Source of the DNA: Verrucomicrobiota bacterium
GTDB taxonomy: Bacteria > Verrucomicrobiota > Verrucomicrobiia > Limisphaerales > JACDHS01
Reading direction: 5' to 3'
DNA: 42,739 bases
Assembly: GCA_013820875.1 (NCBI GenBank)
Contig: JACDHS010000030.1
Span: 1-42,739, forward strand
How positions within the stretch are numbered: the first letter of the stretch is position 1; each line of letters opens with the position of its first letter. Positions 13,650-30,912 of this stretch are shown here, piece after piece. The notes under the pieces are model-generated. The model saw only the letters and a list, made by a program, of their open reading frames with translations, searched no databases and was not told the DNA's origin. The position numbers and the translations under genes were made by a program.

Positions 13650-14510
13650 GCCGTCAGAATAGGTGAGTTCCTGAAAAACTCAACTGGATGTGAGTGGGGT
13701 GGTGTGAATTCAAACTGGCGGTCACGAATGCGCAAGTTTCAAATGTTCCCGAGGGACAACTTCTATTCCACCCGAAAACAGCAAGGAACCGCCCTGTTCA
13801 CCGTAAAAACCACCTAATCAACAGGTTAGAACCCGGGAACAGCAGAAATATTCTCCTGTAGCGGATGACCGGATGAAAACGAGAGTCTTCTCGGGTGAAG
13901 CGATGCGACGGAATGAGTCGGTGAGGTACAAAAAAGATCGTTCCCGGCGGACGGTTCGGCGAGCTCGAAAAACACGTATTTCTCGTCTTTTGTGAGTCAC
14001 GGAAGAGGTGAATTACGTAATTCAGTTGTTTTGCAGAACCAAAATTCCGTGAAATACGTATTTCACTGCTTTTGTGGATCACAAATTCCGTGAATTACGT
14101 AATTCACGTCGTCCGTGACTCACGAAGGTGCTGAAATACGTAATTCAGGTGTTCCGTGACTCACGGGAGTGGTGAATTACGTAATTGCGTTGTTTTGTGG
14201 ATCACAAACTCCGTGAAATACGTATTTCACCGCTTTTGCGGAGTCAAAATTCCGAGAATTACCTAATTCACTACCTCCGTGACTCACAAATCTCGTGAAT
14301 AACGTTGTTTGCTCCGATGTAAGTAGCTGGGGAAGAGGAGTTTGGGAGGGGGGTGCAGATTCTTTTTGAGCAACCGGTAATCCAAATGCAACCCTCTGCA
14401 AAACAGCCACTTGGAACGACTCTCCTCCGATGCGTGCCCGTCTTGTGCAGGCGTCTCTGCGGTTCCCACCGAGTGACCATTTGAGATCAAAAGGTATGCG
14501 GAAAGTCGGG
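13650..14510. other. Gene-free region holding the 41-bp palindrome array
   Basis: No supported gene lies in these 860 bases. Short open frames exist on the minus strand but run through the repeat array and have the repetitive composition of the array. Positions 13650-13960 show nothing recognisable. The array at 13965-14311 is listed separately. Positions 14312-14510 up to the dmeF stop hold nothing I can name. Confidence 0.6.
13965..14311. repeat. 41-bp tandem array of two alternating palindromes
   Basis: Two palindrome types alternate at a fixed spacing. Type P is GTGAAATACGTATTTCAC or TGAATTACGTAATTCA, with centres at 13975.5, 14016.5, 14057.5, 14098.5, 14139.5, 14180.5, 14221.5, 14262.5 and 14303.5: exactly 41 bp apart. 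Type D is GTGACTCAC or TTTGTGGATCACAAA, with centres at 13996, 14037, 14078, 14119, 14160, 14201, 14242 and 14283, also exactly 41 bp apart and half-way between the P sites (20.5 bp, about two helical turns). Bases outside the palindromes vary, but the spacing never does. Within P sites the inner arms change together (AATT with AATT, AAAT with ATTT), keeping symmetry; 14139.5 and the two outer units are imperfect. All strong units share GTGA...TCAC ends. Confidence 0.92.
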
Positions 14511-28577: not shown

Positions 28578-28828
28578 ATCCATTTTCCTCGGCTATCGCA
28601 ATTTGATGCGCATTGATCTCATCCACTTTTAATCACACTCCCTTCTCTCTGGGCGCATCTCGATACTGCTACGGATACCCTCCGTAGCGGGTGTAAAAGG
28701 GCTGAGTTATCACAAGCGATGCAGCGTGTCGATTTGCTATGTTTGAGACCCGAAGAGAAAATTGGCCTTTTTCCACCCGAAATTCCCGCGAAAATACCAA
28801 AAAGTAAGGAAAACGGGCTGTTTATCCA

Positions 28829-29110
28829 TTTTTTCGTTCTGTTTTAGAACCCTGGTTGGCCAACTTGCCGTCAAAACAGAACGAAAAAGTAGGTAGGTTG
28901 GCCAACGAGGTATCTAAAACAGAACGAAAAAGTAGGTAGGTTGGCCAACGAGGTGTCTAAAACAGAACGAAAAAGTAGGTAGGTTGGCCAACGAGGTGTC
29001 TAAAACAGAACGAAAAAGTAGGTAGGTTGGCCAACGAGGTGTCCAAAACAGAACGAAAAAGTAGGTAGGTTGGCCAACGAGGTGTCTAAAACGGAACGAA
29101 AAAGTAGGTG
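28829..29110. repeat. 43-bp tandem array with an inverted lead unit
   Basis: A 43-bp unit starting AAAACAGAACGAAAAA and containing the palindrome TTGGCCAA begins at 28873, 28916, 28959, 29002, 29045 and 29088. Units are nearly identical and the last is cut short at about 29110. Just upstream, 28830-28845 is the exact reverse complement of the first 16 bases of the unit, so a 16-bp stem can form with 28873-28888 around a 27-nt loop that also holds TTGGCCAA. The array ends 75 bp before the next gene. Confidence 0.92.
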
Positions 29111-29184
29111 GCAGGCCCCGAGCGGCCTTGAGCCACGGGAATTTTATCCACTTGCGAAAGTTTATATCCTGCTAAACTCCGTCA

Positions 29185-30912
29185 GTGGCAACTCATACCA
29201 CATCGCCCTTTCTGCTCCTGTTGCGAACGAATCTGCTGTTCGCGTTGCGGAAAATTAAAGGTGTCCGGGATCAATCCCGGTTTCTTTCCGCGCTCATTTT
29301 CCTGTTTATTCTCGGATACTCAGTCCTGGCGTTTTGGCTTTTCCGGCTTGGACTCACCTTTCTGACCAAGTTTCCGGGATTGGGTGTGCTCCTTACGGAA
29401 CGATTGATCTTCCTGTTATTCGCATTTCTTTTTGGTCTTTTGCTCCTGAGTAACTTGATCATTAGTTACACGAACTTTTTCCGGAATCGAGAGACGGACT
29501 TTCTCCTTTCGCTGCCGGTTTCACCGCAGACCATTTTTCGATGGAAATTTGTTGAATCCATTTTGCTGGCCTCATGGGCGTTTGTTTTCTTAATCGCACC
29601 GTTACTGGCGGCCTACGGGTTGACGCGTGCGGTGCCGTGGCATTTTTACTTTTTCACATTGTTTCTAATCAGCCTCTTCATCGTGCTGCCGGGAGTCGCC
29701 GGCGCCTGGGTGGCGATCAATATCGCTCGCTTCCTCGACCGACGCGCTTTTCAGGTTCTTGTCGTCGTTATTGGCGGTGGGTTGCTTTGCTCGGCTTTTA
29801 TCTGGCTGCGCGCGGAACCTATTTCGGATGAGATGGTGGAGACGCGTGTTTTGGCCGTGCTCGACCGGTTGCTGATGAAAACGCAATTCTCCCAGTTTCC
29901 TTTTCTGCCGAGTTATTGGTTGTCGCAAGGGGTGTTGCAGTGGTCGGATGGGGCTTTGGCATCGGCGGGATTTTTTGCCCTCGTGTTGTGCAGTAACGTT
30001 TTATTTTTTGGCTATCTCAGTTTCACGCACATGGGAAACTGGTTCTACGATTCGTTTTCGATGGTGCATAGCCGGGCGAGTATTTTGGGAGAATGGAAAT
30101 GGTTTCAAGCACTGCAAAAGCGCGGCACGGTGTTCAAGTATTCACGAGGGATTCCCGATCAGACGCTGGAAAGGATTAAAGGGATGTCGTCTGATGTTCG
30201 GGCGTTGATCATCAAGGATGCCCGGATCTTCTGGCGGGACACGACGCAATGGGGGCAAACATTGGTGCTGTTCGGTTTGCTGGCGGTTTACATTGTCAAT
30301 CTGCGTCACTTTTCCCAGCAATTGACCAATCCATTTTGGATTAACCTGGTTTCGTTTTTGAACCTTGGCGCTTGCGCGTTGAACCTGGCGACTTTGACGA
30401 CACGGTTTGTTTATCCGCAATTTTCCCTGGAAGGAAAGCGGCTTTGGATCGTCGGGATGGCGCCGCTGGGACTGGTCAATGTGGTGAAGACAAAGTTCTG
30501 GATGGCGAGCCTGGCCTCGCTGGCGGTGACCATGAGCTTGATTTGGCTTTCGTGTCACATGTTGAGGATGCCATTCGAGCGCACCCTGTTTTTTGCGGCG
30601 GCGATTGCGATTATGACGTTTACCCTGAATGGATTGGCGGTCGGGTTGGGGGCGCTTTATCCGAATTTCAAAGAAGACAATCCGAGCAAAATTGTGAGCG
30701 GTTTTGGCGGTACGTTTTGTCTGGTGCTCAGTTTTCTTTACATCGTTTCGTCGGTGCTGCTGCTGGCCTATGGCTCACCCTGGGGATGGCGCGGAGTTCC
30801 TCTGTATCGTGATGCGCTTGGGAGTTGGCTCGGTTTCGTGCTGTTGTCCCTTGTGCTTGGGCAACTGCCGTTTCAACTGGGCCTGCGCCGGGTGAAAAAC
30901 TTCGAGATGTGA
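29185..30912 (+). CDS. ABC-2-like multi-pass membrane permease
   Basis: A 575-residue protein with about 12 membrane segments, resembling the putative ABC exporter (ABC-2-like) permease group. Soluble loops carry FRNRETDFLLSLPVSPQTIF near residues 98-117, a motif typical of such permeases just before a coupling helix, and IIKDARIFWRDTTQW near 345-360. Start is GTG 29185. No ATP-binding subunit is next to it, so its partner must be elsewhere. It is convergent with ubiX, separated by 13 bp, and is preceded by the 43-bp tandem array. Confidence 0.75.
   Translation: MATHTTSPFLLLLRTNLLFALRKIKGVRDQSRFLSALIFLFILGYSVLAFWLFRLGLTFLTKFPGLGVLLTERLIFLLFAFLFGLLLLSNLIISYTNFFRNRETDFLLSLPVSPQTIFRWKFVESILLASWAFVFLIAPLLAAYGLTRAVPWHFYFFTLFLISLFIVLPGVAGAWVAINIARFLDRRAFQVLVVVIGGGLLCSAFIWLRAEPISDEMVETRVLAVLDRLLMKTQFSQFPFLPSYWLSQGVLQWSDGALASAGFFALVLCSNVLFFGYLSFTHMGNWFYDSFSMVHSRASILGEWKWFQALQKRGTVFKYSRGIPDQTLERIKGMSSDVRALIIKDARIFWRDTTQWGQTLVLFGLLAVYIVNLRHFSQQLTNPFWINLVSFLNLGACALNLATLTTRFVYPQFSLEGKRLWIVGMAPLGLVNVVKTKFWMASLASLAVTMSLIWLSCHMLRMPFERTLFFAAAIAIMTFTLNGLAVGLGALYPNFKEDNPSKIVSGFGGTFCLVLSFLYIVSSVLLLAYGSPWGWRGVPLYRDALGSWLGFVLLSLVLGQLPFQLGLRRVKNFEM

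What the first reader, a model, noticed from the sequence alone, without database searches (positions are those of the whole stretch)
13965..14311. Phase-locked array of two alternating palindromes with an exact 41-bp repeat
Seen directly: nine type-P palindromes (GTGAAATACGTATTTCAC and variants) alternate with eight type-D palindromes (GTGACTCAC or TTTGTGGATCACAAA). The P centres are exactly 41 bp apart, as are the D centres, and D lies 20.5 bp (about two helical turns) from P. Sequence between sites varies but the spacing never does, and paired changes keep most P sites symmetrical (AATT/AATT versus AAAT/ATTT). That suggests selection on symmetry and phasing, as expected for a polymerising DNA-binding protein on one face of the helix, a centromere-like or chromosome-organising site, or an enhancer. 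It is not a CRISPR: no constant repeat with unique spacers and no cas genes. I know of no described element with this alternation.
Basis: partly seen in the sequence, partly recalled or inferred. Interest (0 to 1): 0.87.

Follow-up and report, generated by a model that had tools for sequence, protein, structure and literature searches.

The report
Genome-wide helix-phased palindrome repeat arrays
In one lineage of uncultured Verrucomicrobia the genome carries roughly 250 short repeat arrays whose sequences are often unrelated but whose repeat unit is always 41-43 base pairs (about four turns of the double helix), usually with two mirror-symmetric sites per unit, which suggests that a rigid, regularly spaced DNA platform is being kept while the letters change.

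Summary
The array is real. Nine P sites sit exactly 41 bp apart with D sites midway; P1, P9 and two of the eight D sites are degenerate. It is not unique. It lies in a ~413-bp dispersed element (13931-14343) with five paralogues in the same genome (65-94% identical), all in 41-bp register; the four with complete arrays have nine units, one is shortened to five. Beyond these, sampling gives about 250 arrays per genome. They have period 41, 42 or 43 bp, usually 7-10 units, many different unit sequences, and are intergenic. A same-family relative of another genus (RYN_621) has about as many, also 41-42 bp, with essentially no sequence in common. About 1.5 Mb from other relatives has virtually none. 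Units carry two discrete ~18-20-bp dyads half a period (two turns) apart. AA/TT steps are enriched at the 10.4-bp harmonic. Several unit-sequence families share one oriented right end, TTGTAAGTSGCTG.

Best reading: a mobile, non-autonomous, modular repeat (analogous to BOX or BIME) whose array is a helix-phased double-stranded platform for a cooperatively binding dimeric protein. The protein and the mobilising enzyme are unknown. A cruciform or RNA hairpin role, or pure selfish amplification, is not excluded.

The parts
13931..14343 (+). Whole dispersed element: left end, nine-unit array, right end; homology to paralogues stops sharply at both sides
   Evidence: 93-94% to C83 over 403-415 bp; also 84% C113, 65% C126, 67% C103, 90% C150
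13941..13966 (+). Left end module (TTCCCGGCGGACGGTTCGGCGAGCTC)
   Evidence: Shared in recognisable form by the six P/D paralogues and by C226
13967..14312 (.). Array of nine P dyads (18 bp, centres 13975.5 + 41k): 13967-13984, 14008-14025, 14049-14066, 14090-14107, 14131-14148, 14172-14189, 14213-14230, 14254-14271, 14295-14312
13989..14290 (.). Eight D dyads (about 15 bp, centres 13996 + 41k): 13996, 14037 (degenerate), 14078, 14119, 14160, 14201, 14242 (degenerate), 14283
13956..14325 (.). Full-length quasi-palindrome centred on P5 (axis 14139.5), 66% Watson-Crick over 184-bp arms
14317..14343 (+). Right end: ATGTAAGTAGCTG followed by GGGAAGAGGAGTTT; the oriented terminus TTGTAAGTSGCTG is shared by arrays of unrelated unit sequence
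28787..29202 (.). Second array in the window: 43-bp period, unit GGTTGGCCAACGAGGTGTCTAAAACAGAACGAAAAAGTAGGTA, member of another multi-copy family
   Evidence: 97% to C9 copy

Best explanation
The array is the core of a dispersed, oriented, non-autonomous repeat element. Shown by computation: the element has a left end, normally 7-10 tandem units of 41-43 bp, mostly with two discrete dyads per unit about two helical turns apart, and in one superfamily a conserved right end (TTGTAAGTSGCTG). Copies sit in intergenic DNA all over the genome. Unit sequence differs between families while the period and the dyads are kept, within the genome and between two genera. Inferred: selection or the making process acts on the B-DNA geometry. 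The array serves as a helix-phased, slightly curved double-stranded platform, on one face of which a dimeric DNA-binding protein (transposase-like or nucleoid/partition-like) assembles side by side, one dimer per dyad, about 16-20 dimers per array. Copies spread by transposition by an enzyme supplied in trans. The identity of both proteins is unknown.
For: Period 41-43 (or a multiple) in 53 of 58 tandem arrays in 1.08 Mb of own genome; the others are one CRISPR (61 bp), two of 24 bp, one of 132 and one of 138 bp. TRF units are 41 (26), 42 (15), 43 (7) and 40 (4, imperfect consensus); the mean of the 41-43 set is 41.6 bp = 4 x 10.4. RYN_621 (G001) has 16 such arrays in 421 kb and almost no shared sequence. 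79 other relatives' loci (1.16 Mb) and 19 further contigs (325 kb) have essentially none. Two dyads half a period apart: complementarity 0.61 and 0.44 against 0.25; each dyad spans about +/-10 bp with unconstrained junctions. AA/TT power at the fourth harmonic (10.25-10.75 bp) is 2.43 +/- 0.27 against 1.36 intergenic and 1.21 shuffled; predicted curvature is 138 against 94 degrees for shuffled units. Paralogous pairs have sharp ends. Six of seven exact TTGTAAGTSGCTG sites have an array directly upstream, with 41- or 43-bp units of unrelated sequence. Neighbour-gene orientation equals background.
Against: No binding protein or transposase is identified; RAYT numbers are ordinary (7 in G000), and ISL3 and Y2 transposases are absent from G000. 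Unit sequences differ so much that one sequence-specific protein cannot read them all. About 30% of arrays show weak dyads or folding. The curvature model is crude. No clear target-site duplication was seen. All data come from fragmented draft assemblies.
Confidence: 0.45

Rival explanations
1. The elements act as folded single strands: transcribed RNA, or ssDNA during replication or transposition. The dyads are hairpins and the whole array is a ~185-bp long hairpin recognised by a structure-specific enzyme (HUH transposase, RNase III or similar).
For: 69% of 36 full arrays fold with z < -4, P/D copies at z about -13. Global palindrome centred on P5 in all five nine-unit paralogues. Modest excess of compensatory pairs at dyads. 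Ten arrays have loop-like centres.
Against: Strand asymmetry of folding and the G.T over A.C excess (88:26) are largely reproduced by dinucleotide shuffles, so no strand is singled out in the P/D family except possibly C103. 21 arrays are symmetric down to near the centre, where a loop could not pair. A hairpin does not explain a strict 41-43 bp period or the 10.4-bp A/T phasing. No Rfam match.
Confidence: 0.27
2. Selfish satellite-like amplification: the 41-43 bp period and two dyads per unit are a by-product of how units are made, for example rolling-circle copying of a ~42-nt two-hairpin circle, as proposed for RAYT-made BIMEs. The arrays have no host function.
For: Fast sequence turnover, homogenised units in some arrays, random intergenic placement. 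Rolling-circle production of tandem palindromic modules has been proposed for BIMEs (PMC2817692).
Against: RAYT numbers are ordinary, and the Y1 genes of G000 are flanked by other repeats that match array flanks, not array units. Diverged arrays (60-77% match) still hold period and usually 7-10 units with few indels, which suggests continuing constraint.
Confidence: 0.2
3. Classical partition or replication site (parS/parC-like or iteron) or chromosome-organising site.
For: Regularly spaced palindromes on one helix face resemble iteron and partition arrays in form.
Against: About 250 copies per genome of many sequences, scattered without bias; no partition or replication gene beside the window array.
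Confidence: 0.05

Closest known systems
BOX elements of Streptococcus pneumoniae (boxA-(boxB)n-boxC; PMC3049150)
   Same: Dispersed element with distinct left and right modules flanking a tandem array of a short module in variable number; predicted to fold when transcribed.
   Different: One boxB sequence family per species; here many unrelated unit sequences share only the 41-43 bp length and symmetry, copy number is usually 7-10, and the arrays are helix-phased dyads.
REP/BIME elements and RAYT (Y1) transposases (PMC2817692, PMC3733652)
   Same: Abundant extragenic palindromes in regularly spaced, alternating arrays; lineage-specific; BIMEs bind IHF and gyrase.
   Different: Units do not match the repeats beside the Y1 genes of G000, RAYT number is ordinary, and the period is fixed across unrelated sequences.
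HINE/Helentron elements with satellite-like cores (oyster; PMC7492417)
   Same: Non-autonomous oriented elements whose core arrays differ in sequence between families but share a narrow unit-length range.
   Different: Eukaryotic, 140-180 bp units; no Y2 transposase found in G000 or G001.
Tandem operator boxes such as ARG boxes (18-bp palindromes, ~21 bp between centres; from memory)
   Same: 18-20 bp dyads tiled about two helical turns apart on one face.
   Different: 17 dyads rather than 2-4, not tied to a promoter, not one consensus.

Membership tests
REP/BIME mobilised by RAYT | Abundant extragenic palindromes in regular arrays | tested here: met
REP/BIME mobilised by RAYT | Palindromes match repeats flanking a cognate Y1 transposase gene | tested here: not met
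   Seven Y1 hits in G000; their flanking repeats match array flanks, not array units. Only about half of the arrays could be compared.
BOX-type modular element | Conserved left and right modules around a variable number of tandem modules, dispersed | tested here: met
BOX-type modular element | Sequence of boxA/boxB/boxC | not tested
   No direct comparison made; Rfam, phage and plasmid searches gave no match
MITE of a known IS | Terminal inverted repeats and target-site duplication of an IS present in the genome | tested here: inconclusive
   Sharp ends but no clear TSD or TIR seen at the boundaries printed; ISL3 transposase absent
CRISPR | Constant repeats with unique spacers and cas genes | tested here: not met
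   The whole unit is repeated; no cas family among the window proteins scanned
Helitron/HINE-like element | Oriented element with 3' hairpin and Y2/HUH transposase in the genome | tested here: not met
   Oriented right end present, but Y2_Tnp absent in G000 and G001
Partition/centromere or iteron site | One or a few sites beside par/rep genes | tested here: not met
   Neighbours are an Na/H exchanger and a cation efflux gene; about 250 arrays per genome

The most novel reading that the evidence does not exclude
A class of genome element defined by geometry, not sequence: hundreds of mobile arrays per genome in which unit letters are free to change but the four-turn period, two dyads per unit and 7-10 units are conserved between genera, forming scaffolds for a shape-reading nucleoid or transposition protein.
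Probability: 0.3. Interest if true: 0.9.

Novelty: new variant of a known kind. Interest (0 to 1): 0.75.

Why it matters
Bacterial dispersed repeats are normally defined by sequence. Here the conserved quantity is the helical phase: unrelated arrays in two genera keep 41-43 bp (4 x 10.4) and paired dyads. That makes the question of whether proteins read DNA geometry rather than sequence directly testable on about 250 natural variants per genome, and points to an unknown mobiliser or nucleoid protein in this lineage.

Tried and rejected
RNA family: no Rfam hit. Strand-specific RNA fold from MFE differences and G.U excess: explained by composition. RAYT: ordinary numbers, flanking repeats unrelated to array units. 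ISL3 and Y2 transposases absent in own genome. Phage or plasmid origin: no match; the single viral contig hit is an isolated palindrome, not an array. The single P match in G004 is a lone site, not an array. Within-array covariation over 18-bp arms in single arrays: too noisy; pooled test used instead. Empty-site comparison by synteny: gene order not conserved. Protein-coding repeat: excluded, since 41 and 43 are not multiples of 3. Gene-orientation bias (terminator or enhancer role): none. Literature searches found no description of such arrays, but only open PMC papers were searchable.

Full report
OBSERVATION. The array is as described: P centres at 13975.5 + 41k and D centres at 13996 + 41k, with no indel over nine P sites. 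Terminal P1 and P9 and D2-3 and D7-8 are degenerate. The whole 370 bp is also one quasi-palindrome centred on P5.

NOT A SINGLE SITE. The P motif (two mismatches allowed) occurs 28 times in the genome, against 0 for the motif read backwards, and falls in six loci: the window and C83, C113, C126, C150, C103. All are in 41-bp register. Four of the five paralogues have nine units like the window; C150 is shortened to five. Pairwise identity to the window element is 65-94%. The window-C83 pair aligns over 403-415 bp with unrelated flanks, which defines an element at about 13931-14343. In C126 most D palindromes are replaced by GCCCGACGGGC, and in C103 most P sites are GTGAAAAATATATTTCAC, yet spacing is unchanged.

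GENOME-WIDE CLASS. BLAST of the element turned up further arrays of different sequence but the same period. In 1.08 Mb of own genome 53 of 58 tandem arrays have period 41-43 or a multiple; the remainder are one CRISPR (61 bp), two of 24 bp, one of 132 and one of 138 bp. Counting only contigs taken without regard to arrays (C1-C41 and C9/C20; hand count) gives 33 arrays in about 741 kb, or about 250 per 5.7-Mb genome. Thirteen BLAST clusters were found among 55 arrays, several of them loosely chained through flanking repeats. Most intact arrays have 7-10 units and none exceeds 9.6 by TRF; diverged arrays (60-77% match) mostly have 7-9.6. Several of the shortest arrays are cut by contig ends.

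RELATIVES. The relative G001 (same family, another genus) is RYN_621, JAQGOU01. 421 kb of it hold 16 arrays with period 41-42 or multiples and almost no sequence shared with G000 arrays (two hits of E about 1e-3). In 79 other named Verrucomicrobia loci (1.16 Mb) and 19 more contigs (325 kb) noncoding 41-43-bp arrays are essentially absent; at lower thresholds 1-4 weak 42-bp hits appear, and the one inspected from the second set (L267, 21/42 bp) looks like a coding repeat. So phase and symmetry persist where sequence does not.

GEOMETRY. Mean unit length of the 41-43 set is 41.6 bp, i.e. 4 x 10.4. At the best axis complementarity is 0.61 and at the axis half a period away 0.44, against 0.25. 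Selecting axes only on outer pairs, symmetry extends about 10 bp from the axis and drops to background at 11-13 bp, so each unit holds two discrete ~18-20 bp dyads; even-type dyads remain partly symmetric to the centre and odd-type ones have an unconstrained centre. AA/TT steps are enriched at the fourth harmonic, 2.43 +/- 0.27 against 1.36 in intergenic 42-mers, and predicted curvature is raised (138 against 94 degrees). Compensatory excess at dyads is small but about 3.7 standard errors. Palindromy is not universal: z > 3 in 38% of units, fold z < -4 in 69% of arrays.

ELEMENT ANATOMY. Several families with unrelated units share an oriented right end TTGTAAGTSGCTG a short distance after the last unit. 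Of seven exact matches in the genome six have a 41- or 43-bp array directly upstream; among 30 inspected matches with up to one mismatch 12 do, and three more lie at contig ends. No clear target-site duplication was seen. Arrays are intergenic and flanking-gene orientation equals background (22/9/6 against 138/71/43 codirectional/divergent/convergent).

MECHANISM. Shown: dispersed, oriented, fast-evolving elements with conserved helical period and, in most, dyads. Inferred: the duplex geometry is the constrained feature, best explained by side-by-side dimers on one DNA face, with spread by an enzyme in trans. Folding as RNA or ssDNA remains a serious rival, but strand asymmetry gave no support. 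RAYT-driven BIME formation was tested and not supported; ISL3 and Y2 transposases are missing.

KNOWN KINDS. It works like BOX elements or HINEs with satellite cores in modular design, and like BIMEs in palindromic tiling, but fails the cognate-RAYT test and is defined by period rather than sequence. Hence new variant of a known kind, with a 0.3 chance of being a new class.

LIMITS.

Noticed in passing
L234:13546-16620 (C160): CRISPR array with 61-nt period, repeat GGACCATCCCCACGTGTGTGGGGAGAAC, about 0.4 kb from a 41-bp array.
   Followed up: no
window 13790 (-), 15504 (+) and many loci: Another dispersed repeat, GGTTCCTCGCTGTTTTCGGTGGAATAG, resembling an IS terminal repeat, often near arrays; ISL3 transposase is absent from this genome.
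   Followed up: partly
L316, L317, L318 (C145, C73, C54): Y1 (RAYT-like) transposase genes flanked by inverted 43-100-bp repeats also found near, but not within, the 41-bp arrays.
   Followed up: partly
window 28787-29202: A 43-bp array ending just upstream of an ABC_tran_2 gene; its first unit is inverted, making a ~60-bp palindrome around TTGGCCAA.
   Followed up: partly
contig starts and ends, e.g. L057, L062, L068, L202, L204, L210, L236: Many contigs break inside these arrays, so the assembly is fragmented by them and array counts are lower bounds.
   Followed up: no
L218:5024 (C39), L301, L307: Right-end motif without a recognisable array upstream; possibly decayed or array-less copies.
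   Followed up: no
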